A DNA stretch of 64,000 nucleotides from Kocuria sp. cx-455. Its GTDB lineage: Bacteria > Actinomycetota > Actinomycetes > Actinomycetales > Micrococcaceae. Where the stretch lies: positions 186,001 through 250,000 of the forward strand of contig NZ_JACXBS010000007.1 of assembly GCF_014698015.1 (NCBI RefSeq), read 5' to 3'. The position numbers and the translations under genes were made by a program. The notes beneath the pieces are model-generated. The model was not told where the DNA came from. It worked only from the letters and a program-made list of their open reading frames with translations, and made no database searches. Positions 2,260 to 58,500 of this stretch are shown here, one piece after another. How positions within the stretch are numbered: position 1 is the first letter of the stretch; each line of letters begins with the position of its first letter.

Positions 2260-2270
2260 GTTCACCGTCA

Positions 2271-2312
2271 CCCCGTGGTGTGGGTATACGCAGGTGCCCC
2301 ACCACCACGGGG
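2271..2312 (+). terminator. GC-rich hairpin between uidA and the permease
   Basis: Arms 2271-2284 and 2297-2312 (CCCCGTGGTG...CACCACGGGG) pair over about 14 bp with a small bulge around a 12-nt loop, 11 nt after the uidA stop. There is no following T-run. It may act as a partial terminator, an mRNA stabiliser or an attenuator that lowers permease expression relative to uidA. Confidence 0.5.
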
Positions 2313-2482
2313 GTCGGTGTCGTCGACCGACCCGAACACCGCCGTTGGCAACTCACGGAAACCACGGGTACTCACGGGGCCCGCTGGTGGAAGCTGGGTG
2401 TAACCAAGGGTGAAGAACCCCTCGCTGACCTTTGAACCGGCGCCGCAGGGCGCGGATCGGCACACAGGCAAAGGAGCCTTGA

Positions 2483-4018: not shown

Positions 4019-4058
4019 TACCGACACCCACCATTGATTTTTCGGAGAGGATAAACAC

Positions 4059-8195: not shown

Positions 8196-9899
8196 GTGTT
8201 AAGAACACCCGCACATCACCGCCCGCGATTAATCTCGCGCCACCGTCACGGCACCGCCTCTGCGGACGACGTGCTGCACGGGTGGGTCCACGCCGAGGAC
8301 CGCGTGCTGTCCGTGGCGGTGCACCGACCAACAGGGCCGGAACGCAACGGCACCGTGGTTATTGCGGGATCGCCCGGCCGCGAACGCGTCACCATGTTCC
8401 GGACCATCGTTGACGTGGCGCGGACCCTCGCGGCGGATGGCTGGCGCGTGGTTCGCTTCGACTGGGCCGGAACGGGCCTGAGCCCCTGGACGACCGAGGC
8501 CGCACCGGCCGAGAACTGGGCGGACGACCTCGAAGTCGTCCGGGAATGGGCCGCGCAGGCCGGCCCCGTGCACGGGCTGGGTGTGCGGCTCGGCGGCAGC
8601 ATACTCGCGGCCTCCGACGAACACGGGTGGGCTTCCCGGCACGTGTGGGCGCCCGTGTCGGGAAAACTGTGGCTGCGCCATCAAGTGGCCCTGCGTCGCA
8701 TGGCAGGCCCCGAGCTGCCGGCCCGGGTGACACCCGGGGTCGAGCTCATGGACCTCCAATTAGGCCCCGAAGGTGCAGACGCCCTGAAACAGCTACCCGA
8801 ACCGGAAGCGGATTTGGGCCGGGGCCTGGACATTCTCGACGCTCCGCAGCTGGAGCCCGTCCCCGTGGACGTTCACCCCCGGGTGGCCAGCGTTCCGCCG
8901 GAGGCCGCGGCCACCATTGCGGGCGCAGTGGCGGCCGTCGCTGACCGGCTTCCCGGTTCCCTTGCCCCCGGCGCGGTGTCGTTGATACCCGATCACGCCG
9001 TGAGGCTGTCCATGGACGGAACCGTGGTCCATCTCCGGCGCACCCGGGTCGGCAGGGACCATCGCCCCGCCGTCATCACCATCCCCGACGACCTGCAACC
9101 GGCAGCGCCCGGGGTGGCGTTCGTGTCCCTGGGTTCAGAACCCATGGAGGCACCGGGTTCCTTGTGGACACGAGCCGCGATCACGGCCTCCGCGCGCGGG
9201 GCCGTGTGTCTGCTCGCCGAACGGACGGACACCGGTGAGTTGGTGCGTCCCGGACGCGCCCAGGATCCTAACCCGTACGTTCGATACACCCTCACCGAAT
9301 CCCGGGAAGTGCTCGAGGAATTGGCGCGGCTCACGGACGGCCCCCTCAAAGCAGCGGGCGTGTGCCTGGGAGCGTGGGGACTCGTCGCGTGTGTCCACCA
9401 GTTGCCCAAACACGTGACGCAACGGTTGTCCCTGTACGCGGTGAACAACATCGGCTGGCAGCGGGCACCCTGGCGGTACTGGCGCCAGGGGCTTCGTAGC
9501 GGGCCCCTGGCACCGGCCATCCCCGGACAGGCACCCGCCGAGCCGAGTGGTAGTGACCCCGCCGCCACTCCGTCGCTGGAGCAGCGACTGGGCGCCGTGG
9601 CCCGCACCATCGTGCGAGGCGCGCGACGGGCGGCGTCCAATGCTCATCCCCGTGTGAGCGCGGCGGCCGCCGCGGTGGGAATCATTGACGTCCCCCATCC
9701 TCTGATGCGCCGTTTGGCGCGGATCCCCGGGCTGCGGGTGGACGTGATTTTCGGACCCGCGGATGCTCAGCACGCCGGCGTGACCGCCGGCCCGATCAGC
9801 ACGAATCACACGGTGACCGTGCTTGATCCCTTGGATCATTCGTTGCACGCCACGGCATCCCGGAGGAGCATGCTGGATCATCTGCTGGCGGACTTGTAG
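8196..9899 (+). CDS. tandem alpha/beta hydrolase-like protein, cysteine type (copy A)
   Basis: 567 residues from a GTG chosen for GGGGGAG at 8184-8190. Two alpha/beta-hydrolase-like halves are visible. In the first, the nucleophile elbow reads GVRLGG with Arg131 where Ser is expected. In the second it reads GVCLGA with Cys390, with a candidate Asp523 (FGPADAQ) and His548 (LDHSLH), so a Cys-Asp-His triad as in dienelactone hydrolase or PHA synthase. The C-terminal end of the protein at 17789-19453 aligns along its whole length, making them paralogues. The halves recall the exosortase-A-associated hydrolases 2 and 1, from memory of those families. Role inferred: hydrolysis or transfer of a thioester-bound acyl group. 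It converges on the aminoacyl-carrier operon. Confidence 0.7.
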   Translation: MLRTPAHHRPRLISRHRHGTASADDVLHGWVHAEDRVLSVAVHRPTGPERNGTVVIAGSPGRERVTMFRTIVDVARTLAADGWRVVRFDWAGTGLSPWTTEAAPAENWADDLEVVREWAAQAGPVHGLGVRLGGSILAASDEHGWASRHVWAPVSGKLWLRHQVALRRMAGPELPARVTPGVELMDLQLGPEGADALKQLPEPEADLGRGLDILDAPQLEPVPVDVHPRVASVPPEAAATIAGAVAAVADRLPGSLAPGAVSLIPDHAVRLSMDGTVVHLRRTRVGRDHRPAVITIPDDLQPAAPGVAFVSLGSEPMEAPGSLWTRAAITASARGAVCLLAERTDTGELVRPGRAQDPNPYVRYTLTESREVLEELARLTDGPLKAAGVCLGAWGLVACVHQLPKHVTQRLSLYAVNNIGWQRAPWRYWRQGLRSGPLAPAIPGQAPAEPSGSDPAATPSLEQRLGAVARTIVRGARRAASNAHPRVSAAAAAVGIIDVPHPLMRRLARIPGLRVDVIFGPADAQHAGVTAGPISTNHTVTVLDPLDHSLHATASRRSMLDHLLADL

Positions 9900-9906
9900 C
9901 CCCGCG

Positions 9907-9933
9907 CCGTGCTGGGCCGGGCCCGCGGCACGG
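9907..9933. terminator. possible hairpin between convergent genes
   Basis: CCGTGC at 9907-9912 and GCACGG at 9928-9933 enclose a GGGCC/GGCCC core, giving a strong GC stem with a bulge. It lies in the 69-nt gap between the ends of the plus-strand hydrolase and the minus-strand GH2 gene. There is no U-tract. Confidence 0.3.
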
Positions 9934-9968
9934 GTTGCACGTGCGCGTGGCGGCGGGCGGTGGGCCGG

Positions 9969-12686
9969 TCACCGGATTGGAACCGGCTCCACCCCCAGGG
10001 CACGCACCAAACCGCCATCGCGGGGCGGGACGGGCCCCGTGCCGCTGACGGGCAACCGCACGGTGTCACCGGGCAACAGGTGCACGTACCCGTCCTCGGC
10101 GACCAGACCCGTCGGCAGGTCCAGGGCAACGAATCGTGCCAGACCCCGGCACGTGACCTCCACGGACCATGTGCCGGTCCGATCCCGGACCCACTTGGCC
10201 GTCAACTCGGGGTCGGCGAGGTCGTCCCGGCGGGGTCCGCCGGACAGGTGTACGTCCCGGGCGAGAACCGTTCCGTCGGAAGCCACGAGCTCGGCACGCA
10301 TTCCCTCGTACTCCCGGGCGCCGAATCCGTAGGCGTTGTCCAGATCGCGGAACGTGCCGTCCGCCAGGTCCCCCCGGAACACCAGTTCTCCCCGGGCCGG
10401 CACCGTGATCGCAACCTCAACGGGTTGCTGGCACCCTCCCTGAACCGTGGCCACGGTCCATCGCAGGGTCGCCGCAAGATTCTCGGGACCGTCATGCCAC
10501 AGGTGAATCGACAACCCGTTGCCGCCCTCGGGCAAGAAGCACACGGTGGTGGGAGCGCACGCCCTGCGCATGCCGTACCACGCGGCCGTGGGGCGCCCGG
10601 CTGCGTCCAGCACGCCCCACCCTGCGCCGGGGGCGGTCGAGTGGGATGCAAGAACCAGTGCCCCTCGGCAGGGTGAGTCGCCCCGGCGCCATTGCGCGAG
10701 AGTTCGTTGGAACACGTGGGCCAGTGCCGCTCGCTGATAGTCCAAGCGGCCCGCGTGCGTGGCCAGGGCTGTCTCCTCCGCAGGCCTCGGTGGGATTGTC
10801 AGAGTGGCATTCGGGTCGCTGTCCCTGTCCAGGAACAACCGCTGCACGTAGCGCATGGTGGTGTCTTCGAAGCTCCAGGCGGCTCCCGGATCACGTGCCA
10901 GCCCGCCCTGCCACGCGGCGGCCCGGTCGGGGTGGTCCAGTGGGCCGTCCGTGCCGAACTGCTCCCGCACCGCGGCCGGTTCCGGGGGGACGGCGAAGGC
11001 CAGACATTCCGCGGCAAATCGAACCCCGCTGCTGCGCGCATCCTCCAAGGGGCGCCCGTAGGCCCCCACGCCGAAGTAATGACACACTCCGTCCGTCGCA
11101 TCCACCGGCGAGTGGACCACCGCTGTGGTCACCGGTTCGGCAATCGTCACGGGCCTCGCCGACGCCGCGCCCGCCTCGTAGGCCCGGGCGGCGGCGTCAA
11201 GATCCGCGTCGGAACACGGTGAGGACGCGACGACCACCACGTCGGCGCCGCCGGCACCGACCGCCCGTGGAATGTCCTCGACCAGAACACCGGGGGTCCA
11301 CTCGGCGGCCGGGCGGCCGGCCAGCACGGGAGCCTGGATCACCTCGGTCCCTCCCGAGATCACGACCGTGGACGGGTGGGCCGCCAAGCGAGCCGCCAGC
11401 GAGCGCACTTCCTCCCTCAGCTCAGCGCGCCAGTCGGGATCATCGGGCGGATCCAGCGGCCCCAGCGCCACGTCCTGCCACACCATGAGACCGAGCTCGT
11501 CGCACAGGTCGTGGAACGTGTCCGACTCGTAGCAGCCGGTTCCGGGCAGCCTGATCATGGTGGCCCCGGCAGCCCGCAGTCGCATCAGAACCGCGCGGAC
11601 GGTGGCAGGATCCGGGGCCGTGTCGGACGGGTCCGCCCCCGCCCACACCGCGCCCCGGGCGAACACGGGGACCCCGTTGACCCGCAATCCCAGCCCCGCG
11701 CGGTCGGCCCGCGGTTGCGCCGTCACGGAGCGAAAACCCACGCGGTGCGAGCTCGTGGTGTTCCCCACTGCCACGCACACCTCGTGCAGCGCCGGCGCCG
11801 CCGCTCCCCCCGCTGTCATGGCGTGGGGCCACCACAGGCGCGGATTCGGCACGGGCAGTTCCACGGTGACGACGCCGCGCCCGCGCGTGTGCGCGGCCGT
11901 CACCACGATCTCGACGCCGGCGCCCGCGCAGCTCACCCGCACGGCTTTCGCCGTTCTTCCCGCCGGGTTCACACGAAGGTCCACCAGCACCGTGCCCGCT
12001 CCGGACTCGTCGACCCGCGTGCGAACCGCGTGGGGCCGAGCCTCGATCACGGGCGCCCGGTGTCCCTCGGACACCGGCTCCGCGGACAGGCCACCCCACG
12101 GGCCCAGGACGGGACGCGCACCGGGCCAGTCGATGTGGCCGATCAGGGGTGTCCGGCGCCACCGCAGTGAGCGGTCCGACACGAGCGGCGAAAGCCATTT
12201 GGCCCGCGGTTTACGAGGGACGCTCACCGTGGACAGCGGGAGGATGCGCAGTGCCACGTCGCATTCCCCCGGTGGTAACCGCACGACGTCGTCCCAGGGC
12301 GCGAAGGCGCTGGTGGAGGTCTTGACCCGGTGGCCCGCCACCCATAGTTCGGAGACGGTGGCCACTCCCCGGGAACGTAGTCTGTGGGGCCCGCCGGACG
12401 TGGTGATCCGGGTGCGGTATTCCCACGCGGTCTCGCCGGCGGTAACCGCCAGTGCCTGCTCGACAGCCCCCTCCCCCAGGGTGTCGCGTAAGGCGCCGGT
12501 TAGTGTCCCGGGAACGCGCGCGGGGATTCCCGTGGCGCGATCGGTCGTTGCCGCCCGCTCGACCGGGACCGGCCGGCCGGTGCGCAGATCGACCGGGACG
12601 AGGGTCCAGGCGGCACCCGAGAACACGTCCCCGCAGTCGTCCTGGAACCACTGCTGCGGTTCACAGAGATATGTCACGCCCGTCAC
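9969..12686 (-). CDS. GH2 beta-mannosidase-like protein, last gene of the carrier-protein operon
   Basis: 905 residues. The GTG start overlaps the stop of the preceding DUF1839 gene (GTGA). The build is that of GH2 beta-mannosidases: N-terminal sugar-binding domain, Ig-like domain, TIM barrel with a GxLVWQDVALG segment, then C-terminal beta domains. A candidate acid/base is Glu448 in VVISGGTEV, where mannosidases usually have WxGNNE, and a candidate nucleophile is Glu560 in RFAAECLAF (usually SEFG). Both carboxylates are kept but the surrounding motifs are altered, so the substrate is probably not a plain mannoside. No signal peptide: cytoplasmic. It may trim or transfer a sugar from the product of the operon. 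Activity is not certain. Confidence 0.75.
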   Translation of the reverse strand: MTGVTYLCEPQQWFQDDCGDVFSGAAWTLVPVDLRTGRPVPVERAATTDRATGIPARVPGTLTGALRDTLGEGAVEQALAVTAGETAWEYRTRITTSGGPHRLRSRGVATVSELWVAGHRVKTSTSAFAPWDDVVRLPPGECDVALRILPLSTVSVPRKPRAKWLSPLVSDRSLRWRRTPLIGHIDWPGARPVLGPWGGLSAEPVSEGHRAPVIEARPHAVRTRVDESGAGTVLVDLRVNPAGRTAKAVRVSCAGAGVEIVVTAAHTRGRGVVTVELPVPNPRLWWPHAMTAGGAAAPALHEVCVAVGNTTSSHRVGFRSVTAQPRADRAGLGLRVNGVPVFARGAVWAGADPSDTAPDPATVRAVLMRLRAAGATMIRLPGTGCYESDTFHDLCDELGLMVWQDVALGPLDPPDDPDWRAELREEVRSLAARLAAHPSTVVISGGTEVIQAPVLAGRPAAEWTPGVLVEDIPRAVGAGGADVVVVASSPCSDADLDAAARAYEAGAASARPVTIAEPVTTAVVHSPVDATDGVCHYFGVGAYGRPLEDARSSGVRFAAECLAFAVPPEPAAVREQFGTDGPLDHPDRAAAWQGGLARDPGAAWSFEDTTMRYVQRLFLDRDSDPNATLTIPPRPAEETALATHAGRLDYQRAALAHVFQRTLAQWRRGDSPCRGALVLASHSTAPGAGWGVLDAAGRPTAAWYGMRRACAPTTVCFLPEGGNGLSIHLWHDGPENLAATLRWTVATVQGGCQQPVEVAITVPARGELVFRGDLADGTFRDLDNAYGFGAREYEGMRAELVASDGTVLARDVHLSGGPRRDDLADPELTAKWVRDRTGTWSVEVTCRGLARFVALDLPTGLVAEDGYVHLLPGDTVRLPVSGTGPVPPRDGGLVRALGVEPVPIR

Positions 12687-13783
12687 TCCTCGAGATCGAG
12701 GGCCTGGCGGGCAGTGTGGATCGCCGCCCGATACCCGGCCGCCAACGCCTCTGCGGCGTTGTCGATGCGCGGAGTGCGCCCCGAGGCCACGCGTGCGAGG
12801 TGGAATTGCAACGTCTTCGCGGCCGCTGCGGCGCCGTCGAACGAATCCGCGGCCCGGGCCAACTGTTCGGCGGACACGTCGCTGGGCCAGGCCGCGGCGC
12901 CGTCGGCGAGGTATCTGCACAGGTGAGCCGCCAGAGCGCCCGTCAGCCCGGCCTGCCGCGTGGTGGCGAAGGAGTAGAGGTGGAAGTAATCCACACCCCG
13001 CTCGGCCAGGACGGGCAGGTGTTCGCGAATGGCGGCCACCAGCCCGTCGGCGGGACCGTGCCCGTCGGGACCCGGAGCGGGAGCCCGCCGGAGATGGTCA
13101 CGGGCCACGGTCAAGGTGGCATGCCAGAGGTCCTCGGGCGAGCGCCGATTCAGGGCGTTCAACCGCACCAGTTCCACGTACGGGTAGGGCACACGACCGC
13201 AGCGCATCCCCGGGCCCAACGTCTCGTCGAGGTCTTCCCCGGAGAGTGTGTGCGCGCCGTCGTTGTGCAGATACACCAGTTCCCCGGTCGACGGATCCAG
13301 CCGCAGGGGCACGATGGACGTCTTGGTGTGCTCCGTGCGATAGGAGACGCCCGCGGTGTCAGGGAGGTAGTAGGCGTCGACTTCCACAATGAGGGCGTCA
13401 CCGCGCGACATGGCCAGCTGGAGGTGCTCGCCCACCGGTCGCCAGGTGTCGTACTCGCCCACCGAGATCCCGTAGAGGACCTCCAGGTCCTCCGTGCGGG
13501 GTTTCACGAACTCCCACTGGTCGCCCAGGAAATCCGCGCTCAGAGCTGCGGCCAGCATGGGGACCGGGTTCAGCCCGAGGGCTGCGAGCAACCCGATCCA
13601 CACGTCCACGTAACAGTTCGTGGGTGACCACGGCTCCGCCGGATCATGCAGGACCGAGCGGGCCACCGTGGCGGGTGTGAGGCCCTCGCAACCTTTGACG
13701 GCCAGGGTCTGCGCGCCGAACGGACCGGCCTCGCGTGCTGCCGGCGGCCCCGGCGACCGGTTCACAGCTGATGTGGTCGTCAT
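12683..13783 (-). CDS. DUF1839 family protein
   Basis: 366 residues from the ATG at 13783, which overlaps the ligase stop by 4 nt (ATGA). I recognise the DUF1839 pattern: an early AVKGCEG segment, EPWSPTNCYVDVW, then FLGDQWEFVKP and a block including LQLAMSRGDALIVEVDAYYLPDT. The second half is helical. No biochemical function is known to me. Genes of this family recur next to amino acid:[carrier protein] ligases, so it is likely part of the same pathway, perhaps receiving the carrier-bound amino acid. The conserved CYVD and acidic EVDAYY segments resemble a cysteine-hydrolase/peptidase-like arrangement (papain-like or BtrH-like acyltransferase), which is speculation. Confidence 0.8.
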   Translation of the reverse strand: MTTTSAVNRSPGPPAAREAGPFGAQTLAVKGCEGLTPATVARSVLHDPAEPWSPTNCYVDVWIGLLAALGLNPVPMLAAALSADFLGDQWEFVKPRTEDLEVLYGISVGEYDTWRPVGEHLQLAMSRGDALIVEVDAYYLPDTAGVSYRTEHTKTSIVPLRLDPSTGELVYLHNDGAHTLSGEDLDETLGPGMRCGRVPYPYVELVRLNALNRRSPEDLWHATLTVARDHLRRAPAPGPDGHGPADGLVAAIREHLPVLAERGVDYFHLYSFATTRQAGLTGALAAHLCRYLADGAAAWPSDVSAEQLARAADSFDGAAAAAKTLQFHLARVASGRTPRIDNAAEALAAGYRAAIHTARQALDLEE

Positions 13784-14721
13784 GACAATCGCAGTTCGTC
13801 TCGCACACCGGTTGGCCAGGCCGCCGTGTTGAATCCGTGCTTGGCCGCGAGCGCCAGGGCCACGCGTTCCAGACCAAATCCGAAACAGGCGGAGTGGGCC
13901 GGTTGAGCGTCCGCGGTACGCAGGTGGAACGCTTCGCCGAAGTGGTCCTCGTGCAGATTGGCCGAGGCGATGGCCGTGGGGTGTCCCGGGTACACCTCGG
14001 TGAGGATCTCGAACTTCAGTTGGGCCTGCCGCTGCCCCGCGCTGAGCAACTTGCCCGCCCTGCCGAAGAACGGGTCGTTGGCCGTGTCCGCTTCGACCTC
14101 GAGTCCCAGCGTGCGCAGCAGGCCGAGGCCCGCTTCGAGCCACAGCGCTCGGTGTTCCACCGCTTGTTCCGGGGTGCCCAGCCGCACGGCCTCGAACATC
14201 CGGAACGTCACGAACCGCATGGGGTCCGCGCTGGGTTCGTGCCGATAGCATTCGCCCACCAGTTCGAAGACCGTGCCGTCAACCTCGGTGCCCTCCAGGT
14301 ACGCGTAGAGGGGGTGGCACACCGCGGGAATCAACGAGTGCCCGGCCGGCGTCAGCGAGGACGACCAGTCGCCGTGCTCCTGATACGTGGCCAGCAGCTC
14401 GCGGTGGGCCGCGTTGTCCCCCTCGAAGGCGTTAATGGTTCCCAGAAGCTGGGGGAACGAGGCCACGTAATCGGTGCGTTCCAGCAACCGGATCCCGTTG
14501 ACGGGCGGGAACCGCAATCGGCGCGCCCCCGGCGCTTTGTCCAGGTCCGCAACAATTCTGCGGGCGGCGCCGATGATGCCCTGCACCACGTCCTCCGCCT
14601 GGGGTCCCAGACCGTTCACGCCCTCGCCGAGCGTTGGCAGGAGCCAGTCGTTGGCTTCCAGGCCGGCGCGGAATTCGGTCTGCAGGTCTTCGAGTTGGTC
14701 GGTCGTTCTTGCTGTTGTCAT
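13780..14721 (-). CDS. amino acid:[carrier protein] ligase (class II aaRS-like)
   Basis: 313 residues. The fold is the catalytic core of an atypical seryl-tRNA synthetase without a tRNA-binding arm. Such enzymes adenylate a small amino acid (Gly or Ala in studied cases) and load it on the phosphopantetheine of a dedicated carrier protein. Key residues: zinc ligands Cys135, Glu177 and Cys279, matching the Cys-Glu-Cys set known for the Bradyrhizobium enzyme; motif 2 with Arg160 in ECYRHEPS; motif 3 with Arg286 in FGFGLER. The start at 14721 follows the 3' end of the dehydrogenase with ATGA overlap and removes ~85 unsupported residues of the open frame. The partner carrier protein is encoded upstream in the same operon. 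Confidence 0.9.
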   Translation of the reverse strand: MTTARTTDQLEDLQTEFRAGLEANDWLLPTLGEGVNGLGPQAEDVVQGIIGAARRIVADLDKAPGARRLRFPPVNGIRLLERTDYVASFPQLLGTINAFEGDNAAHRELLATYQEHGDWSSSLTPAGHSLIPAVCHPLYAYLEGTEVDGTVFELVGECYRHEPSADPMRFVTFRMFEAVRLGTPEQAVEHRALWLEAGLGLLRTLGLEVEADTANDPFFGRAGKLLSAGQRQAQLKFEILTEVYPGHPTAIASANLHEDHFGEAFHLRTADAQPAHSACFGFGLERVALALAAKHGFNTAAWPTGVRDELRLS

Positions 14722-15935
14722 CGGAGTCCCCTTGAGACCGTTTGGAGCTTGGCTGTGTGTTGGAGGATCCGGTCGTTGTTGACCATCACGGAGGGCCCGA
14801 TGCTGTCGCGGTACAACCGGGCCAGGCTCATGGGCGACCGATTGGCGAATCCGGAAATGCCCACGATCACCATGGCGTCCCCCACGATCGTGCGCACGGC
14901 CTCCGCCGCGGAAACCTTGAGGGTGTTCATGGAGATCGCGAACGGCATGCTTTCGCACGTGCGCGGTGAATCCCACGCCGCCTGGTAGCGGGCCACCGAG
15001 GACCGCACCACGTCCGTCATGGCCTGCAGCGCCACCTCCAGTTCCGCCAGCCGCAGGGCGGACGGCGGAGGGTTCTCCGGATCCTTACGGGCAGCTTTCT
15101 GCACCACGGACCGGGCCACGAGCCCGGCTTGGGTGGCCATTCCCAACCACACCGACGCCCACAGGCAGTGGGCGGCCGGCAGCATGGTCTGGGCGGAGAT
15201 CGTTTCGAACGGCACCCCGAACACCGCATCGGCATCCGTCTTCGCCTCCAGCTCGAAGGCCTCGGAACACGTTCCGCGCATCCCCAGGGCGTCCCACCCC
15301 CGGGTCCTCGTGAGGTCGATGTCCGTGGCAGCCACTGCCACGAGCACCTGGTCGCTACTGACGGCACCGGCATCACGGCGAGCCGTCACGAAAATCGCGT
15401 CCCCGGCGCTTCCGTAGGAAATTACGGGGCAGCTCTTGTGCAGGTGTATCCGCCCGTCTCCCGTGTCGTTCACGGCGCACGACGACGTCCGGGTGTCACC
15501 ACCGATGGCGATCTCGGTGGTCGCTGAGGCCAGCAGCAGTCCGTCACCGGCCACGCGCCGCGTCATGTCCCGCAGCAGGTCGGTGTCCGCATGGCGGGTG
15601 AGGCACAGTACCTGCGAATAATGCATGGCCAGAATCATCGCCGTGGACGTGCACTCACGACCCACGCGCTCAAGGGTCGAGCACAATTCGGTGATGGAGT
15701 ACCCGAGGCCTCCCAGGGACTCCGGCACGGGCGCGCCCAGCAGCCCCTGGGCTCTGGCCTCTGCAATCGCTTGCGCGGGGAAGAGCGATTCCGAGTCAAT
15801 GGTGGCCGCGTGTTTCTTCGCCACGGTCGCCAGGGCTTCGGCCCGGGCCGCACACGCCCGGGACCGGCCCGGAAGCAGGTCCGTGGTGGATTCCACCTCG
15901 GGTCCGGACGCGATTCGCTGGGTTGTTTCAGTCAT
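14718..15935 (-). CDS. acyl-CoA dehydrogenase-like flavoprotein (probable acyl/aminoacyl-carrier oxidase)
   Basis: 405 residues. N-terminal helical domain, central beta domain and C-terminal four-helix domain of the acyl-CoA dehydrogenase fold are all recognisable (LGAPVPESLGGLGY; DALGMRGTCSE; RLYRDSIGPS). The usual catalytic Glu in the YEGT loop near the C-terminus is missing: the aligned stretch reads PSVMVNNDR, so another residue must act as base or chemistry differs. Relatives that act on carrier-bound amino acids are known (prolyl-carrier oxidases in pyrrole formation). The gene overlaps the carrier protein gene by 8 nt and the ligase by 4 nt. Proposed role: oxidation of the aminoacyl or acyl thioester on the carrier. 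Confidence 0.8.
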   Translation of the reverse strand: MTETTQRIASGPEVESTTDLLPGRSRACAARAEALATVAKKHAATIDSESLFPAQAIAEARAQGLLGAPVPESLGGLGYSITELCSTLERVGRECTSTAMILAMHYSQVLCLTRHADTDLLRDMTRRVAGDGLLLASATTEIAIGGDTRTSSCAVNDTGDGRIHLHKSCPVISYGSAGDAIFVTARRDAGAVSSDQVLVAVAATDIDLTRTRGWDALGMRGTCSEAFELEAKTDADAVFGVPFETISAQTMLPAAHCLWASVWLGMATQAGLVARSVVQKAARKDPENPPPSALRLAELEVALQAMTDVVRSSVARYQAAWDSPRTCESMPFAISMNTLKVSAAEAVRTIVGDAMVIVGISGFANRSPMSLARLYRDSIGPSVMVNNDRILQHTAKLQTVSRGLR

Positions 15936-16182
15936 GATCGATTCCCTCCACTGCCTCTGAAATGGAACTGATGGATGTGAACGTCGCTTTGGTCAGCAGT
16001 TCCTCGGGGAACTCGATGTCGAACTCGTCCTCCAGCCCGAGCATCACGTTGACCGACGCATGGGACGTCATGCCTGCGCGGTACAGATCGACGTCCGTGC
16101 CGAGGGTGTGGGCGTCCTGGGACAGCTTGCCGTGCTCGGCCAGGACCTTGCGGACGGTGAGTTCGGTGGTGGTGGTTTCCAT
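15928..16182 (-). other. internal start giving a free 84-residue carrier protein
   Basis: Within the fused gene, GAAAGGGG (plus-strand 16191-16198) sits 8 nt before the ATG at 16182. Translation from here would give an 84-residue acidic carrier protein of normal length with the phosphopantetheine Ser at residue 40. So one frame can give a fused and a free form, or the upstream ORF may simply read through. The sequence cannot decide which is made. Confidence 0.6.
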
Positions 16183-16668
16183 GGGATGGGCCCCTTTCAA
16201 TCGGCGGAGTTCTGTGGTCATGGTGTCGATCGGTGCGCGCAAGGCGCCGGCCGACGGGTCTGGTGGGCAGCTCAACGCGAGCGCGACCGCCAGTGCGTAG
16301 TCCCCGTCATGAGACATGCTCACGGACCAGTCGCCCAGTCCTCTGCGGGTCGCCAGCGCTGCCGCTGAATCGGTCAGGCACAGGCGGGGCGCGCCGTCGG
16401 CCCCCGTGTGCACCGCAATGCTCGGCCACGGGACGGCGTCGGTGGCCGCCGGGGCGAGGACCTTCAACACGGCTTCCTTCGCGGCGAAGCGTGCGGCCAC
16501 CGACTCCGGGGACGTGAGCTTCGAGTCCGCTGCGAGCCGCGCGAATTCCGCTGTCCCGAAGACGGCTCGGAGATAACGCGCCCCCAGCCGTGCCATGGAT
16601 TCCGCCACGGGAGCGATCGACTGGATGTCGCAGCCGACGCGCGGGCCGGCGGTCTGTGCGATGGTCAT
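15928..16668 (-). CDS. AcpS-type phosphopantetheinyl transferase fused to a small carrier protein
   Basis: 246 residues in one uninterrupted frame from an ATG that overlaps the previous stop (ATGA at 16665-16668). Residues ~10-132 are an AcpS-like 4'-phosphopantetheinyl transferase with Asp14 (VGCDIQS) and KEA at 64-66 in FAAKEAVLKV. Residues 163-246 are a carrier protein with the modified Ser202 in AGMTSHASV, matching the carrier proteins used by amino acid:[carrier protein] ligases. The two domains are joined by ~30 residues rich in Pro/Ala. A good internal ribosome binding site lies before residue 163, so the carrier may also be made separately. Enzyme and substrate in one polypeptide is unusual. 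Confidence 0.85.
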   Translation of the reverse strand: MTIAQTAGPRVGCDIQSIAPVAESMARLGARYLRAVFGTAEFARLAADSKLTSPESVAARFAAKEAVLKVLAPAATDAVPWPSIAVHTGADGAPRLCLTDSAAALATRRGLGDWSVSMSHDGDYALAVALALSCPPDPSAGALRAPIDTMTTELRRLKGAHPMETTTTELTVRKVLAEHGKLSQDAHTLGTDVDLYRAGMTSHASVNVMLGLEDEFDIEFPEELLTKATFTSISSISEAVEGIDHD

Positions 16669-17801
16669 GACCCCTCCCCCGACGTGATGTTTTCGAACTC
16701 GGGCCCAACCGGCTGGGCCGCAACGGAGCGCTCGATTCCCAGCCGATCGGCCCAGCGGCTCAGTGCCACGGTGGCCGCCGGTCGCCAGCATTCAAAGGTG
16801 TGCTCGCCATTGCACCCGGCGGGGCGGCCGTACATGGTGTAGGAATAGGGCGACCCCTGCGACCGGAGGGCTTGCGCCAAGTTCTCCGTGGTCTCCCGCA
16901 AGGTGGGCTCCAGGTCCCCGGCCGAACCGTTGCCCTCACCCACGAACAACTGAACCTTGGTGCGCTTCAGCGCTTCGCTCTGGCTCACCGGGTCCTGCGC
17001 GTCCCATTGCTCATCCGTTGTGCTCTGCCCGTTGCCGAAAATCGCGTCGGTCTGCCCGGTGGCCTCCTCCGACACCTGGCTGAACATGTCCCTGACCTCA
17101 CCGGATGAGAGGTCCAGCAGGCCGGACAAGCTGATGGCCTCCGCAAACAGGTCCGGGCGTTGTTCGGCGTAGCGAATTGCTCCGTAACCACCCATGGAGT
17201 TCCCCAGGACAACTCGATCCTCCCGGCCGGTGCGGGTGGGAAGATGAGCGTCCACCCACGGCACCAATTGGTCGAGATGATACGTTTCCCACTGCTGCGC
17301 CCGGTCATCGGATGCCGTCCAGTCGGTGTACCACCCGTCCTTGCCGCCGCTGGGGATGACCGTGATGACGGGCAGCCCGTCGGTGATCTGCTCCGCATGA
17401 CCGGCCTCGAACCATTGGCGGGCCGGGGAGGTTTCTGCCCCGCTGCCGCCCAGAAGATAGACCACTCGATAACGCGTCCCGGGATCGTAATTCTGTGGCC
17501 TGACGATGATGACGGAGTTTTGGCCGCCGGGCAGTCCCTCGGCCACCGCGTCCGTGCTCACGCCGATTTCCACGGCACGCTCGGACAAGGCCTGCGCACC
17601 CGTCACGGTGATGCCGTTCGAGGGCTTGTCGAAGTCCGTTTGGTCGAGGAAATCGGCCTGTTGCAGGGCCGCGGAGCCCGTTGCCATGGGCGATTGTGAG
17701 GGGGTAGGGCCGCCGTCCCCGGCGGCGCACCCGGTGAGCACCATGGCGATGACCAGGGAGCAGATGAGCCCGACCACGGATGTCCTTCTCACGCCGCGCA
17801 T
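16665..17801 (-). CDS. lipoprotein esterase of the antigen-85 / esterase D type
   Basis: 378 residues. Signal peptide with lipobox LTGC and lipidated Cys25, so the enzyme should face outside on the membrane. Residues ~90-360 are an alpha/beta-hydrolase of the putative-esterase family: oxyanion region LLGGSG, GWYTDW as in mycolyltransferases, nucleophile Ser202 in GNSMGGYGA, and His334 in GEHTFECW. Cys330 and Cys337 could form a disulfide near the active site. Proteins of this family include acyltransferases that move acyl groups onto surface sugars. Its 5' end overlaps the upstream hydrolase by 13 nt. Proposed role: outside transfer or removal of the group built by the operon; direct evidence is lacking. 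Confidence 0.8.
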   Translation of the reverse strand: MRGVRRTSVVGLICSLVIAMVLTGCAAGDGGPTPSQSPMATGSAALQQADFLDQTDFDKPSNGITVTGAQALSERAVEIGVSTDAVAEGLPGGQNSVIIVRPQNYDPGTRYRVVYLLGGSGAETSPARQWFEAGHAEQITDGLPVITVIPSGGKDGWYTDWTASDDRAQQWETYHLDQLVPWVDAHLPTRTGREDRVVLGNSMGGYGAIRYAEQRPDLFAEAISLSGLLDLSSGEVRDMFSQVSEEATGQTDAIFGNGQSTTDEQWDAQDPVSQSEALKRTKVQLFVGEGNGSAGDLEPTLRETTENLAQALRSQGSPYSYTMYGRPAGCNGEHTFECWRPAATVALSRWADRLGIERSVAAQPVGPEFENITSGEGS

Positions 17802-19453
17802 GACTGCACCTCACCGATCGGGCCGGCCGTCAGTCCCATGGACGCGTCCACGATCTGCAGCGCCGTTGACCTCGAGGAATGGGACTGCAAGGCGTGATCG
17901 AGGGTGGCCAGGTGCGTCACCATGACGTGTCTGCCTCGTCGCTGCAACCGACGCAGCCCCCGGTCGCCCCGTTCCTGAAGGAACAACAGGCCGTCCTCCG
18001 GACCGAACAGATAAGACACTTCCGCGCCGCGTGATGAATACTCCATAACGACCTCCGGCACATTGGGAAGGCTGCGTCGCCCCAGGAAAAGCCACAGGGA
18101 GTAGGGCATCAGGCGCCGGATCCGGTCTTTCAACCGGGTGCGGAAATTCGTGGCTATCGCCACATCGCCCATGGACCGCAATTGTTCGAGCACCGCGTCC
18201 ACGTCCCAATTGCGGTAAAGCCTCTCGTAGTAGCTCTCGGCCGCTCGCCACGCCACGTTGTTGAGAATGACACGGCGGCGCATGGGGCTGTCCTGCGGAG
18301 CCATGGCCACGAGCCAACCCCCCGCGCACAGGCCTACACCCGTGACTTCCTCGCCGGTCCGGTGGTGCAACCAGCGCGCTCCGGAGTCGATATCGGCAAT
18401 GCCCTGGCGGGTGTATGGGTTGACGTCCTTGACTTCATCCAGCCCGGCACCGTCCCCGCAATGATGGCGTTCCACACGCAATGCCGGTACCCCGCGTGCC
18501 GCGAGCCTCCGGGCCGCTATCGTCCACAGGCCCGTGGGACCGTCCTTGGGTTCCGCCGACGGCGGGGCCAGAGTCACGGCACCCAGGCCGGTTCCGTGGT
18601 TGTCCACGGGGTGGGTGTAGGAGGCAGGCAGGCGGTCCTCCCCGAGCTCGAGTAATTCTTCGATCACGTCCACACCGAATTCCGCCACATGAAGGCGGGC
18701 CGTGCACTGCGGCTGCCAGCCCCCCGCCCGGTAGTCGCGACGCGGCCCACCGCGCAACCGCCCCACCAAGCTCGCGATGGCGTCAGGGCTCGCCTTGGCG
18801 TAAATCGACGCCACTCCGTACAGTTTTTTGGCCACCCGGCGGTCCGCTTCACGAATCACGTCGACGCCCCGATCCTGATGCGTTTGCATCTTGTGCGGGT
18901 CCTTCAGCGTTCGAATGGAGGCAGCCTCGGCATCCGAGTAGTGGGCCCCACCGATCTCGAGGCCTTCCTCGCTGACCGGCGGCAGGATCAGCCCGCTCGC
19001 GCGGCGCAGCCCGCTGTACTGGCGCAGGAACACGGCGCCTGACACCGGTTCCCACAGCAAGCGTTGCTCGAACGGGACTGCCGAGGCAGCCAGGAGTGCT
19101 GCGCCGATACGCAGCCCGATCGCGTGGACCGGAGCATCATCGCCCACGATCCTGCGCGCTTCGGAATATCCCAGTGCGAGGTCGTCCTCCCAGATCGCCG
19201 CGGGATCACTGCCCTCGGGTCGGGCCCCCGATTCGGCGGTGCCGCTCCAGCTCAGTCGGATGGCCACCCAGCCGTTTTCGGCCGCGCATGCAGCGACCAA
19301 CCGCATGCTGCGGTGGCTGACAACTTCCTCCCTGGCCAGTGCAGGTGCAATGACGACCGCGCCGCGGACCCGGCCGTGTGCCGGACCGTGAACCCACGCG
19401 TGAATCACGCGATCAGGCGCAGCAATAAATGTTGCTTGGCCTTCTACCCTCAT
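17789..19453 (-). CDS. tandem alpha/beta hydrolase-like protein, cysteine type (copy B), first gene of the operon
   Basis: 554 residues from the ATG at 19453, chosen for the GGGGAG before it and because similarity to copy A begins here. The first half has GLRIGA at the elbow (Arg115 instead of Ser). The second has GLCAGG with Cys376, and candidate Asp487 (FGPEDG) and His520 (LDHALQ). The same Arg-then-Cys pattern is in copy A at 8196, so it is conserved by selection, not a sequencing error. This is the promoter-proximal gene of a seven-gene operon. A cysteine nucleophile suits acyl transfer from a phosphopantetheine thioester; this is inference. Confidence 0.7.
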   Translation of the reverse strand: MRVEGQATFIAAPDRVIHAWVHGPAHGRVRGAVVIAPALAREEVVSHRSMRLVAACAAENGWVAIRLSWSGTAESGARPEGSDPAAIWEDDLALGYSEARRIVGDDAPVHAIGLRIGAALLAASAVPFEQRLLWEPVSGAVFLRQYSGLRRASGLILPPVSEEGLEIGGAHYSDAEAASIRTLKDPHKMQTHQDRGVDVIREADRRVAKKLYGVASIYAKASPDAIASLVGRLRGGPRRDYRAGGWQPQCTARLHVAEFGVDVIEELLELGEDRLPASYTHPVDNHGTGLGAVTLAPPSAEPKDGPTGLWTIAARRLAARGVPALRVERHHCGDGAGLDEVKDVNPYTRQGIADIDSGARWLHHRTGEEVTGVGLCAGGWLVAMAPQDSPMRRRVILNNVAWRAAESYYERLYRNWDVDAVLEQLRSMGDVAIATNFRTRLKDRIRRLMPYSLWLFLGRRSLPNVPEVVMEYSSRGAEVSYLFGPEDGLLFLQERGDRGLRRLQRRGRHVMVTHLATLDHALQSHSSRSTALQIVDASMGLTAGPIGEVQSCAA

Positions 19454-19887
19454 AGGCTTCTCCCCACCCATTAATGGCCCGGAACACCCCAACGTGCACC
19501 GCCATCCGATCCCCACCGGATTGACCAAAGTCCTTGGCCTCGTTCCGCTCGTTTGCCCCAGCGTCACGGACCTTTCGACATTATTCCGAGGCCACCTCTC
19601 GAACCAGGAATTCAGCCGATAACGTCAGCATACCCGCACTCCCGGCCCGGTCGGCCGGAATTCTGCAGGCCTAACTCTTTGTCGCACTCTCAATGTATTC
19701 ACATAATGCCGCCTCACAAGTGGGATTACTTCTGGTGTCCCTATTTAGGGTGACAAATTATGAAGAACTACGCTATTGCGTCTTTCCGCGACGTGCTTAT
19801 TATGTGAGCTAGCGGATGGTGACTTGGGGGTTACCACCGTGTTCTCGGGCCTTGGGCTATGGGCCATTTTTTGGGGGAGGTCTCTTC
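19454..19887. promoter_or_regulatory. divergent control region between carrier-protein operon and polysaccharide operon
   Basis: 434 nt with no convincing gene. It drops to unusually low GC at about 19675-19800. A perfect inverted repeat CCCTA-TT-TAGGG lies at 19739-19750 and a palindrome CCATTAATGG at 19468-19477. Both flanking leaders contain GTGTTC followed by CGGGCC and then CATT before a G-rich ribosome binding site, on opposite strands. This suggests one regulator for both operons. Promoter elements cannot be fixed by eye. Confidence 0.45.
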
Positions 19888-21159
19888 ATGGGGCAACGCG
19901 TTTTATTCATTGGGCTCAATTACGCCCCGGAACACACGGGGATCGCTCCGTACACGTCAGGAATGGCGCACGCTTTGACTGCCGCCGGGTGGGACGTGGG
20001 GGTTGTTACCGGGCTACCGCATTATCCACAGTGGCAGGTTCACGCCGGTTACGAGCGCGGCAACCGGAACCGGGACATCATCAACGGCGTACCCGTTGCG
20101 CGAGTACCCCACCCGGTTCCGAGAAACGCGGGACTCGCACGCCGGCTCGGAATGGAAATCATGTTCGGCCTGCGTGCGGCACGGGCCAGGTGGAACAACC
20201 CGGATGCAGTAGTGGTCGTGAGCCCGGCACTGTTCGCATCGATGATTGTCCGGCTGCGCGCCAAGTACCACGGCATTCCGGTGCTTGCCTGGGTGCAGGA
20301 CATCTACACGGCGGGACTGACCGAAACGGGATCCGCCGGGGGGTTTGCCACCAGGGCCATGCGCGCCGTGGAAGGTCGTTTCCTGCGCTCGTGCGAGGCC
20401 ACGGTGGTCATCCATGACCGCTTTGCCCAGTACGTGCAGCGCGAGCTGGGCGTGGACCCGGCGCGCGTGCACACCGTTCGGAACTGGACCCACATCGGAC
20501 CATCGACTCACGTGGACACCGCCACACTGCGTGAGCGGTTCGGTTGGCCCATGGAGGACATCGTTGTGCTGCACACCGGCAACATGGGCGCCAAGCAGGA
20601 CCTGGCAAACGTGGTCGCCGCGGCCGCCCGGGCCGATCAATCGGGTGCCCCAGTGCGCTTCGTCCTGGTGGGTGGGGGACGGCAACGCCCACTGCTCGAA
20701 GAGCTGGCCGCCCACGCACCGCGCCTCGAAGTGCTGCCCAGCGTGGACGATGAAACCTACAGTGCGCTCCTGGGCGCCGCGGACGTACTGCTCGTCCATG
20801 AGCGTCCCGGGGTGACCGAGATGTGCGTACCGAGCAAGTTGACCAGCTACTTCACCGCCGGGCGCCCCGTGCTCGCGGCCGTCGAAGCGCACAGCCCGTC
20901 CGCATTCGAGGTTGCTTCGGCCGACGCGGGAATGCGGGTCCCTCCGGGGGACCCTCAAGCGCTCGTGGCCGGGGCACTCACGCTCCACGGTGAATGGGTC
21001 GAATCCGGGGGTACCCGCCACAACGGTGGCGCCCGCTACGTCCGTGAGGTCCTCAGTCGCGATGCCGCCACCAAGGCTTTCATCGCTGCGTTGAATGCGG
21101 TGCGGGCCTCAGGTCATGCACCCACGCGCACCACCACCTTTGCTACCCCCACCAACTGA
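19888..21159 (+). CDS. glycosyltransferase family 4, WcaI-like
   Basis: 423 residues. The ATG at 19888 follows TTGGGGGAGG. GT-B fold: N-terminal [16 protein letters not shown] is the WcaI-type opening, and the C-terminal nucleotide-sugar site includes [12 protein letters not shown] and the [16 protein letters not shown] segment. WcaI-like enzymes add sugars, often fucose, during exopolysaccharide repeat-unit assembly at the cytoplasmic membrane. The following gmd and fcl genes make GDP-fucose or a relative, which supports this. The gene is 16 nt before gmd. Confidence 0.85.
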
Positions 21160-21175
21160 ACCGGGAAATATTCCA

Positions 21176-22216
21176 ATGACTAAAAAAGCGTTGATCACCG
21201 GCATCACGGGCCAGGATGGTTCGTACTTGGCCGAGCTCCTACTCTCCAAGGGCTATGAGGTGCACGGGGTGATCCGGCGGGCTTCCACTTTCAACACCTC
21301 ACGCATCGACCATTTGTACCAGGACCCGCACTCTCCGGAAGCACGCTTGTTCCTGCACTACGGAGATCTTTCGGACGGCGCCCGCCTGGTGACACTACTC
21401 GGCGAGATCGACCCGGACGAGGTGTACAACTTGGCAGCTCAGTCCCACGTCCGCGTGTCGTTCGACGAACCAGAGCACACGGGCGCCACGACGGGGCTGG
21501 GTACCGTGAGACTGCTGGAAGCCGTCCGGCGGGCGGGTGTGAAGTGCCGCTTCTACCAGGCGTCGACCTCCGAGCTCTACGGCGCCACGCCGCCTCCGCA
21601 AAATGAGAACACCCCGTTCTACCCGCGGTCCCCCTACGGTGCCGCGAAAATTTACTCGTACTGGATCACCAGGAATTACCGCGAGGCGTATGACATGTTC
21701 GCGGTCAATGGGATCCTGTTCAACCACGAATCCCCTCGCCGCGGCGAGACGTTCGTGACCCGCAAAATCACGCGCGCGGTAGCCGCCATCGCCGCGGGAA
21801 GACAGGAGTTTCTCTACATGGGCAACCTTGATGCCGTGCGTGACTGGGGCTACGCGGCCGAGTACGTCGAGGGCATGTGGCGCATGCTTCAGGTCGACGA
21901 ACCCGAGGATTTCGTCCTGGCCACCGGACGTGCCACGTCGGTGCGCGAGTTCCTGGAAACGGCGTTCGAGCATGCGGGTCTCACCTGGCAGGATCACGTT
22001 CGGTTCGATGAGCGGTACCTGCGACCCACGGAGGTGGACGCCTTGATCGGCGACCCCTCCAAAGCGGAGGAGAAGCTCGGTTGGAAGGCCCGGGTCCACG
22101 CACCCGAGCTGGCCCGCATCATGGTGGATGCAGACCGTGAAGCCCTGGAGTGCGTGGGCACCTCCTGGATCGACACGGTCAGGGAAAGCGTCTGGGCCCC
22201 GGAGACCGCCGCATGA
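21176..22216 (+). CDS. gmd: GDP-mannose 4,6-dehydratase
   Basis: 346 residues. It converts GDP-D-mannose to GDP-4-keto-6-deoxy-D-mannose, NADP dependent. The Rossmann start [12 protein letters not shown], the SSTSELYG-type segment, the YGAAK catalytic pair (Tyr-x3-Lys) and [17 protein letters not shown] are all typical. Length is normal. Start ATG 21176 gives the family N-terminus; no strong Shine-Dalgarno, so coupling to the preceding gene is likely. The stop overlaps the next start by 4 nt. Confidence 0.95.
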
Positions 22217-23277
22217 GCGCCGATCAAATAACCGCAACTCTACGGAGCGCCGCGGACGGCCTCGGACCGCGCACCATCAGCGATCCTGCGGATGCGCGTA
22301 CCCACGATGATGTGACCTACACCCCCGGCGAACTGGATCGATCCGCCCCGTTCTACGTGGCCGGCCACCGCGGGTTGGTGGGCTCGGCCGTCTGGCGGCA
22401 CCTGGAGAACCAGGGCTTCGACCGTCTCATCGGGGCGACCTCATCCGAGGTGGACCTGAGGGATCGTGCCGCGGTGGAACGATTCATGTCCGAGCACCGG
22501 CCCCGGTACGTTGTGCTGGCCGCGGCCCGGGTCGGTGGGATCGCGGCCAACAATTCCCGCCCGGTCGATTTCCTGTCCGACAACCTCCGCATCCAGGTCA
22601 ATGTCCTGGATGCGGCACTTGCCGCGGGCGTCGAACGGGTGCTGTTTCTGGGCTCATCATGCATTTATCCCAAACTTGCGGAGCAACCGCTGCGGGAGGA
22701 CTCCCTGCTGACCGGGTATCTGGAACCGACCAATGATGCGTACGCGATTGCCAAGATCGCGGGCATCATGCAGGTCCAGGCCGTGCGGCGGCAATACGGT
22801 CTGCCCTGGATCTCGGCCATGCCCACCAATCTCTACGGGCCGGGGGACAATTTCTCTCCCGAGGGTTCACACGTCCTGCCCGCGATGATCCGCCGTTACG
22901 ATCACGCGGTGGAAGCCGGTGCCACGTCCATCACCAATTGGGGTTCGGGCTCACCGAAGCGCGAATTCCTGCACGTGGTCGATCTCGCCACGGCGTGCTT
23001 GCACCTGCTGGAGCACTACGACGGGCCGCAGCAGGTCAACGTCGGTACCGGGGAGGACGTCACGATCCGGGAACTCGCGGATCAAGTCGCGCAGGCCACC
23101 GGCTACCAAGGCGACACGCACTGGGACACCAGTAAGCCCGACGGCACACCGCGCAAACTGATGGATGTCTCGCTGCTGCACGCACAGGGCTGGTCTCCCA
23201 CAGTGGATCTGACCACAGGCCTCCGGGACACCGTGGCCTGGTACCGGGCCCACCGGGGGCAGGCCCGGGGCCTGTGA
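22213..23277 (+). CDS. fcl: GDP-L-fucose synthase (GDP-4-keto-6-deoxymannose epimerase/reductase)
   Basis: 354 residues. It makes GDP-L-fucose from the product of gmd with NADPH. Features: [15 protein letters not shown] dinucleotide motif, GSSCIYP, YAIAK (Tyr-x3-Lys) and [20 protein letters not shown]. The N-terminus carries about 45 extra residues before the Rossmann motif compared with the usual ~310-residue enzyme; an internal start is possible, but the ATGA overlap with gmd supports this one. With gmd it shows that the surface polysaccharide here probably contains fucose. Confidence 0.93.
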
Positions 23278-45080: not shown

Positions 45081-45086
45081 TCGGAC

Positions 45087-58165: not shown

Positions 58166-58500
58166 GGGCGGTCCCCCTCGGGCGAGCGCGAGCGCAACCA
58201 CCGCCACAGCACGGGCGCGCCCAGGATGTAGATCATGGTTTGGTAGCACAGGAACGCCAGGAAGAAGACCTCTTCGATCGGAAGCTCGGGTGCCACGAAG
58301 ATCCCCAGCGTGAGCGAGTTGTCACCGTGCCAGAAGAGCCCGTGGAAGATGGCCACCACGTCCCACGCGAGGAAGAACGCCACGCCGGCGACCAGCACGA
58401 TCCAGGCTCGCACCGGCGCACCCGACCAGAAATAGAGGTCCCAGCGGCGGTCGATCAGGGCGTAGCAACCAATGAACACGAGCAGCATCAACAGGTACAT
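58162..58500 (-). CDS. crtYe: C50 carotenoid cyclase subunit (CrtYe/CrtYg type)
   Basis: 112 residues, three membrane segments. LFWHGDNSLTLGI and LPIEEVFFLAFLCYQTM are the typical conserved stretches of the first subunit. Start ATG overlaps the crtI stop by 1 nt (TGATG). Confidence 0.88.
   Translation of the reverse strand: MYLLMLLVFIGCYALIDRRWDLYFWSGAPVRAWIVLVAGVAFFLAWDVVAIFHGLFWHGDNSLTLGIFVAPELPIEEVFFLAFLCYQTMIYILGAPVLWRWLRSRSPEGDRP

What the first reader, a model, noticed from the sequence alone, without database searches (positions are those of the whole stretch)
8196..19453. Uncharacterised aminoacyl-carrier-protein pathway in one tightly coupled operon
Seen: seven minus-strand genes overlap by 4-13 nt (hydrolase B, lipoprotein esterase, phosphopantetheinyl transferase-carrier fusion, acyl-CoA-dehydrogenase-like flavoprotein, amino acid:[carrier protein] ligase, DUF1839, GH2), and a paralogous hydrolase A converges on them. 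Known: stand-alone seryl-tRNA-synthetase-like enzymes load Gly or Ala on small carrier proteins, but the fate of the aminoacyl group is not known to me. Inference: this operon holds a full route: loading, oxidation on the carrier, transfer through a cysteine hydrolase, sugar processing by GH2, and export-side transfer by the lipoprotein. Nearness to a fucose-type polysaccharide locus suggests a glycan or glycoside product.
Basis: partly seen in the sequence, partly recalled or inferred. Interest (0 to 1): 0.9.

Follow-up and report, generated by a model that had tools for sequence, protein, structure and literature searches.

The report
Conserved aminoacyl-carrier operon in Kocuria
A tightly packed set of bacterial genes appears to load a small amino acid onto a carrier protein and pass it to another molecule, most likely an amino sugar; the gene set recurs in distant bacteria and has been predicted in print, but its product is still unknown.

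Summary
Seven minus-strand genes (9969-19453) overlap by 13, 4, 8, 4, 4 and 4 nt, and a paralogous hydrolase converges on them.

Carrier, flavoprotein, ligase, DUF1839 and GH2 recur in that order on one strand in 45 of 80 DUF1839 loci, 11 of them outside Actinobacteria. All 20 of 295 family genomes with DUF1839 have the ligase.

The idea is not new: Iyer et al. 2010 (PMC2922099) noted such a neighbourhood and predicted ligation of a modified amino acid to a cell-surface amino sugar.

The PPTase-carrier fusion is rare (3 of 44), and the carrier keeps its own start. The hydrolases are fused relatives of exosortase-associated hydrolases, with a nucleophile invariant only in the second half. The lipoprotein esterase is a Kocuria addition.

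Substrates, product and export remain unshown.

The parts
8196..9899 (+). Hydrolase A: tandem alpha/beta hydrolase, paralogue of hydrolase B (28% identical), convergent to the operon
   Evidence: (TIGR03101 35.7 bits, TIGR03100 29.6 bits)
9969..12686 (-). GH2, beta-mannosidase-like, no signal peptide seen by eye; both catalytic Glu kept (E448, E560) but GGTE in place of GNNE
12683..13783 (-). DUF1839 (PF08893), papain-like; C57-T155-H173; proposed carrier-dependent amide synthase
13780..14721 (-). Amino acid:[carrier protein] ligase, SerRS-type class II core without the tRNA-binding domain; C135, E162, C279 align with the zinc ligands
14718..15935 (-). Acyl-CoA-dehydrogenase-fold flavoprotein without a Glu at either known base position
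15928..16668 (-). AcpS-type phosphopantetheinyl transferase and carrier protein (GMTSHASVN motif) in one frame; internal start of the carrier at 16182
16665..17801 (-). Lipoprotein (LTGC lipobox, by eye) with PF00756 esterase domain; Kocuria-specific addition
17789..19453 (-). Hydrolase B: fused relatives of hydrolase 2 (N) and hydrolase 1 (C) of exosortase loci; N-half elbow GLRIG without a nucleophile, C-half C376-D487-H520
19816..23277 (+). Divergent glycan genes: GT4 glycosyltransferase, GDP-mannose 4,6-dehydratase, epimerase; the GT4 stands beside hydrolase B in 8 of 8 close Kocuria loci (L023-L030)

Best explanation
A lincosamide-synthetase-like route that attaches a small, probably modified amino acid to an amino sugar. 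(1) The AcpS-type enzyme makes the holo carrier (inferred from family). (2) The SerRS-like ligase activates a small amino acid (Gly or Ala in the studied homologues; recalled and PMC9437257) and loads it on the carrier (inferred from homology). (3) The flavoenzyme alters the carrier-bound aminoacyl group, by an oxygenation or another oxidation that does not use the standard dehydrogenase Glu (inferred; direction unknown). (4) DUF1839 takes the acyl group onto Cys57 and passes it to the amine of a sugar, as CcbD does (inferred from fold and invariant residues). (5) The GH2 hydrolyses or transfers a glycosidic bond of the acceptor or product in the cytoplasm, and the Cys-Asp-His half of the tandem hydrolase edits, releases or hands on the acyl group (weakest steps). 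(6) The product is most likely built into a surface glycan; in Kocuria a lipoprotein esterase adds an outer step. No step is shown by experiment here.
Against: No sequence similarity between DUF1839 and CcbD, AziU3 or CtaG was found (E up to 10), only fold. The DUF1839 triad is read as C-(T/S)-H (PMC10318531) and not Cys-His-Glu as in CcbD, so the chemistry may differ. 13 of 70 loci show none of the glycan genes sought, and one lies beside an NRPS. The glycan profiles were built from neighbours of these same loci and the loci are related, so the enrichment is overstated to an unknown degree; for sugar-phosphate transferases alone it is weak (13 of 70 against 2 of 40, p 0.04). Iyer et al. call their redox enzyme a Rossmann-fold protein, which the flavoprotein here is not, so the match to their set is not exact. 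No acceptor, amino acid or product was tested. The roles of GH2 and of the hydrolases rest on little.
Confidence: 0.5

Rival explanations
1. The same chemistry makes a small soluble aminoacyl glycoside (antibiotic, signal or thiol-like metabolite), and the glycan genes are neighbours by chance or supply sugar nucleotides.
For: The fold relatives CcbD, AziU3 and CtaG are from small-molecule pathways (for the last two recalled). 13 of 70 loci show none of the glycan genes sought. The Gordonia locus L042 has an NRPS and an esterase beside the ligase. The lincosamide pathway likewise uses a GDP-sugar (PMC12945683 passages).
Against: Glycosyltransferases are near most loci (54 of 70). The gene order is kept over phyla, and no transporter or resistance family was seen among the ten neighbour clusters annotated, though most clusters were not annotated.
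Confidence: 0.22
2. DUF1839 and the hydrolases make an ester, or move the acyl group to a lipid or protein (as the Dlt system does with D-alanine), with no amide to an amino sugar.
For: Papain-like and Cys hydrolase folds can carry out esterification and thioester transfer (general knowledge). The lipoprotein esterase should face outward in Kocuria. The C-half of the hydrolase matches ester and thioester hydrolases.
Against: The three fold relatives with solved structures form amide or amide-like bonds from carrier-bound acyl groups (for AziU3 and CtaG recalled). No Dlt-type membrane O-acyltransferase was seen among the neighbour proteins scanned (only a part of all neighbours). The lipoprotein was not found outside Kocuria.
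Confidence: 0.15
3. A nonribosomal peptide or modified amino acid pathway in which the aminoacyl carrier feeds peptide synthesis (the first proposal for these ligases).
For: [quoted passage not shown] NRPS beside L042. Ligases without DUF1839 occur in 4 of 7 ligase genomes of the phylum sample.
Against: One ligase and one carrier with no condensation domain in the operon. A glycosidase in 77 of the 80 fetched loci.
Confidence: 0.08
4. The flavoenzyme is catalytically dead or a plain dehydrogenase, and the unmodified amino acid is transferred.
For: It has the acyl-CoA dehydrogenase fold. The profile's best solved match, 7p98, also has no Glu in the YEGT-like place and is called a dehydrogenase.
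Against: 38 invariant columns in 32 sequences, including H105, R186, Q196, R220, H256, N387 and R389, argue for an active enzyme.
Confidence: 0.15

Closest known systems
Amino acid:[carrier protein] ligase neighbourhood of Iyer et al. 2010 (PMC2922099 note added in proof; Agrobacterium Atu2574)
   Same: Ligase, carrier, redox enzyme, a highly conserved uncharacterised protein, glycosidase and saccharide genes; same inference of an amide to a surface sugar amine (whole of section 17 read)
   Different: Their redox enzyme is called Rossmann-fold, here it is acyl-CoA-dehydrogenase fold. In the passages seen there is no structure evidence and nothing on tandem hydrolases or a lipoprotein. That Atu2574 is a DUF1839 protein is my reading, not tested; their supplementary file was not seen.
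Bradyrhizobium Bll0957 (PDB 3mey, 4h2w)
   Same: Ligase homologue (4h2w 201.6 bits, 3mey 197 bits); bll0958, next in number, is listed as an acyl-CoA dehydrogenase (PMC10888616 passage)
   Different: The window ligase is below the NF005479 cut-off (326 of 357 bits); amino acid specificity not tested.
CcbD/LmbD lincosamide condensing enzymes (PDB 7yn2, 9dkr)
   Different: 14% identity, no sequence match by profile; C-(T/S)-H read for DUF1839 against Cys-His-Glu; the lincosamide activating enzyme is an A domain and not a SerRS-like ligase.
Exosortase A-associated hydrolases 1 and 2 (TIGR03100, TIGR03101)
   Same: 7 of 7 non-window members scanned match both models; in 5 (L085, L092, L093, L098, L061) at opposite halves with 69.5-127.4 bits
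   Different: Fused in one protein, below the models' cut-offs; in L032 and L058 both best stretches fall in the N-half; no exosortase found in this genome.
GH2 beta-mannosidases (PDB 5n6u, 2vjx)
   Same: Best solved matches over most of the length, both Glu
   Different: S or T before the acid/base Glu in 58 of 73, where 6bye has GNNE; 7 of 73 do have Asn there.

Membership tests
Amino acid:[carrier protein] ligase | SerRS-type class II core without the tRNA-binding domain | tested here: met
   313 aa aligned to Bll0957 over residues 61-312; the type-2 SerRS 3w3s (527 aa) matches only with 301-507
Amino acid:[carrier protein] ligase | Zinc ligands Cys, Glu, Cys | tested here: met
   C135, E162, C279 in all 45 sequences, aligned to the SerRS positions (which residues bind zinc is recalled)
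Amino acid:[carrier protein] ligase | Curated score of NF005479 (357 bits) | tested here: not met
   326.3 bits
Amino acid:[carrier protein] ligase | Loads an amino acid on the encoded carrier | not testable with these tools
   needs enzyme assay
DUF1839 (PF08893) | Score over the gathering cut-off, C-(T/S)-H residues | tested here: met
   349.1 against 22.5 bits; C57 60/60, T/S155 60/60, H173 60/60
CcbD-type carrier-dependent amide synthase | Fold | tested here: met
CcbD-type carrier-dependent amide synthase | Cys-His-Glu triad | tested here: inconclusive
   Cys and a His are invariant, but the order is read as C-(T/S)-H in PMC10318531; models were not superposed residue by residue
CcbD-type carrier-dependent amide synthase | Sequence homology | tested here: inconclusive
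   no match in the PDB sequences at E up to 10
Acyl-CoA dehydrogenase | Fold and Pfam domains | tested here: met
   PF02771 and PF00441 over cut-off
Acyl-CoA dehydrogenase | Catalytic Glu at the MCAD or the isovaleryl-CoA dehydrogenase position (positions recalled) | tested here: not met
   MCAD-type place (385) is V 55, I 11; the other place (255) is A 31, S 30, T 5, of 66 (first placed by the alignment, second by eye)
GH2 beta-mannosidase | Two catalytic Glu | tested here: met
   E448 in 70 and E560 in 72 of 73
GH2 beta-mannosidase | Asn before the acid/base Glu | tested here: not met
   window GGTEV against GNNEV in 6bye; over 73 members S 46, T 12, N 7, Q 7, E 1, so 7 members do keep Asn
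Exosortase A-associated hydrolases | Curated scores of TIGR03101 and TIGR03100 | tested here: not met
   60.7 of 202.75 and 13.9 of 168.45 bits for hydrolase B
Exosortase A-associated hydrolases | Exosortase in the genome | tested here: not met
   PF09721: no match at E <= 0.001 in the own genome

The most novel reading that the evidence does not exclude
DUF1839 clusters are a widespread second use of lincosamide-synthetase chemistry: a SerRS-like ligase in place of an A domain charges a carrier with Gly or Ala, a base-less flavoenzyme oxygenates the aminoacyl thioester, and DUF1839 forms an amide with an amino sugar that is built into a surface glycan, with a GH2 whose acid/base motif is in most members altered where a normal 2-OH would be held. 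This would be a kind of glycan decoration not yet described by chemistry, as far as I know.
Probability: 0.25. Interest if true: 0.8.

Novelty: new variant of a known kind. Interest (0 to 1): 0.55.

Why it matters
[quoted passage not shown] The conserved operon names the partner enzymes, and the CcbD-like fold of DUF1839 turns the question into one in vitro reaction: loaded carrier plus DUF1839 plus amino sugars. Kocuria offers a compact operon next to a polysaccharide locus in which a deletion could be read out on the cell surface.

Tried and rejected
Rejected: that the lipoprotein is a core part (window and 8 of 80 loci, all Kocuria; a different PF00756 protein lies beside the ligase in L042). 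Rejected: that the PPTase-carrier fusion is a feature of the system (3 of 44 fused). Rejected: that the 16 Rhodococcus-type loci, which show only DUF1839-GH2 in the fetched stretch, lack the ligase: 14 were tested and all 14 genomes have it, 13 of them on the same contig 14.3-14.7 kb away and one (L059) on another contig; L039 and L064 were not tested. Rejected: membership in an exosortase system.

Led nowhere: solved structures for the hydrolase by sequence; DUF1839 profile against PDB sequences (only designed coiled coils); paper searches for the ligase, its locus tags and exosortase-linked genes beyond those cited (find in PMC1569441 gave no passage; passages held nothing on the pathway). 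DUF1839 itself is named in 1 paper of the library. The 2010 PNAS paper on the ligases is not held, so its results are recalled or cited through others. BtrH was not among the fold matches; this excludes nothing.

Limits: searches used stop-to-stop open frames and my own clusters. In one search, sequences with frames too short or given another label were left out (60 DUF1839, 45 ligase, 66 flavoprotein, 73 GH2, 34 carrier and 30 PPTase rows, window counted); one search had 47 hydrolases, two of them from the window. One search dropped 10 of 80 loci under 15 kb. Only ten neighbour clusters and a further ten neighbour proteins were annotated with Pfam.

Full report
Setting. The window lies in a 3.06 Mb genome. 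The genus is Kocuria: same-genus handles carry contigs of the same lengths as named Kocuria records, for instance G455:C21 with 51272 bases and the Kocuria varians contig of L023. DUF1839 is found in 17 of 27 genomes of the genus, 20 of 295 of the family sample and 3 of 296 of the phylum sample, the own genome counted each time.

Observation. The eight genes stand as described. The seven minus-strand genes overlap by 13, 4, 8, 4, 4 and 4 nt, and hydrolase A converges with a 69 nt gap. Hydrolases A and B are 28% identical and are the only two places found with hydrolase B in this genome.

Conservation. Of these 80, GH2 was found in 77, ligase in 64, flavoprotein in 64, carrier in 63, PPTase in 43 and the lipoprotein in 8. 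The order carrier, flavoprotein, ligase, DUF1839, GH2 on one strand is seen in 45 of 80; 9 and 6 have two other mixed-strand arrangements, 16 (all Rhodococcus or Rhodococcoides by title) have only DUF1839 and GH2 in range, and 4 lack GH2 or carrier. Eleven of the 45 are outside Actinobacteria: Azospirillum, Pleionea, a Steroidobacter, a Beijerinckiaceae, a Deltaproteobacteria, an Acidobacteria and a Troglogloeales record (titles). Presence and absence agree with dependence of DUF1839 on the ligase. In 295 family genomes all 20 with DUF1839 have a strong ligase match, one genome (G499) has the ligase alone, and one (G404) has a 19.8-bit match that I disregard. In the phylum sample all 3 with DUF1839 are among 7 with the ligase. 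For 14 of the 16 Rhodococcus-type loci I searched the whole genome: 14 of 14 have the ligase, and in 13 it lies on the contig of the DUF1839 locus, judged by equal contig length, 14.3-14.7 kb away, just outside the fetched stretch.

Ligase, carrier and PPTase. The ligase matches Bll0957 sequences with 201.6 and 197 bits. The residues aligned with the zinc ligands of SerRS-type enzymes (C135, E162, C279) are in all 45 sequences. The carrier part belongs to NF005480 (97.6 bits, cut-off 72), and its phosphopantetheine Ser is invariant in 34. The PPTase part keeps the AcpS pattern (pattern recalled). The fusion is not general: in the 44 sequences (43 loci and the window) where both were found, 3 are fused (window, L033, L099) and 41 separate. 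In the window the carrier has its own ATG at 16182 behind GAAAGGGG, at the place where the 8 close Kocuria relatives start a free carrier. A free carrier may therefore be made as well.

Flavoprotein. It has the acyl-CoA dehydrogenase fold. Its nearest NCBIfam model is Rv1679/FadE16 at 95.9 bits of 600; PigA, RedW-type prolyl and MbtN models, which act on carrier-bound groups, score 37.8, 27.6 and 20.7. Against solved structures, short-chain dehydrogenases (99.5 bits) and nitrososynthases (DnmZ 85.6; 3m9v 81.6, KijD3 by recall) score near one another. The place of the MCAD-type Glu is in LMVNNDRI (V 55, I 11 of 66), and the place of the isovaleryl-CoA dehydrogenase Glu holds A 31, S 30 or T 5 of 66 (the positions are recalled and the second was aligned by eye). 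The best solved match, 7p98, also lacks that Glu, so this alone does not prove an oxygenase. Iyer et al. suggested monooxygenation by an enzyme that they call Rossmann-fold; my data are compatible with oxygenation and do not show it.

GH2. The family profile matches beta-mannosidases best (5n6u 344.8 bits). Both catalytic Glu are kept (E448 in 70, E560 in 72 of 73), but the residue before the acid/base is Ser in 46, Thr in 12, Gln in 7, Glu in 1 and Asn in only 7 of 73, where the mannosidase 6bye has GNNE. I recall that the Asn contacts the 2-OH of the sugar in this clan and that the GH2 exo-glucosaminidase also departs there; the latter is among the hits (2vzs, 89.3 bits). An amino sugar substrate is thus a lead and not a result, and the 7 members with Asn speak against a strict rule.

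Glycan link. Beside the operon in the window lie a GT4, GDP-mannose 4,6-dehydratase, an epimerase, a Wzx-like flippase and a Wzz-type protein. The GT4 stands beside hydrolase B in 8 of 8 close Kocuria loci, in four of them with a small unassigned ORF between. Over all loci of at least 15 kb, 57 of 70 hold a gene matching profiles for GT4, GT2, sugar-phosphate transferase or GMD, against 7 of 40 control windows from related genomes. The profiles were built from neighbours of these loci and the loci are related, so the p-value (4e-11) should not be taken at face value. Sugar-phosphate transferases alone give 13 of 70 against 2 of 40 (p 0.04). Thirteen loci show none.

Judgement. What is added here is the breadth of linkage, the fold evidence that places DUF1839 with carrier-dependent amide synthases, the nature of the tandem hydrolases, the missing base of the flavoenzyme and the mostly altered GH2 motif. 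What remains unknown is the amino acid, its modification, the acceptor and the final product.

Noticed in passing
window 469-5288: GH2 with full domains, a transporter (by eye GPH/MFS-like) and a mandelate-racemase-type enzyme (PF13378/PF02746) in a row, looking like a hexuronate-use cluster.
   Followed up: partly
window 38733-47039: PP2C phosphatase, FtsW/RodA, PbpA and a PASTA kinase, then a second kinase: the usual actinobacterial cell-wall control cluster (second kinase by eye).
   Followed up: partly
window 56902-60083: UbiA prenyltransferase and an amine-oxidoreductase-family protein (carotene-desaturase-like by eye) with small membrane ORFs between, probably carotenoid genes (for the two; rest by eye).
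   Followed up: partly
window 25511-26929: 472-aa protein between the flippase and the Wzz-like gene with no Pfam match; perhaps a Wzy-type polymerase.
   Followed up: no
L032, L033, L035 (13.5-17.9 kb): A second Kocuria lineage has a more distant version (DUF1839 43-45% identical in the best segment) with two tandem hydrolases in a row after the GH2 and no lipoprotein found.
   Followed up: partly
L042:5-7237: Gordonia locus with an NRPS frame (condensation, one AMP-binding, two carrier stretches, thioesterase) and a PF00756 esterase directly beside the ligase.
   Followed up: partly
Rhodococcus-type loci, e.g. L049, L089, L097: Between DUF1839-GH2 and the ligase 14.3-14.7 kb away lie GT2-type genes, a GH16-like gene and an unassigned 738-aa protein, so glycan genes sit inside the split system.
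   Followed up: partly
G107, G128, G204, G292, G499: Genomes with the ligase family but no DUF1839 match; the ligase should have other uses there.
   Followed up: no
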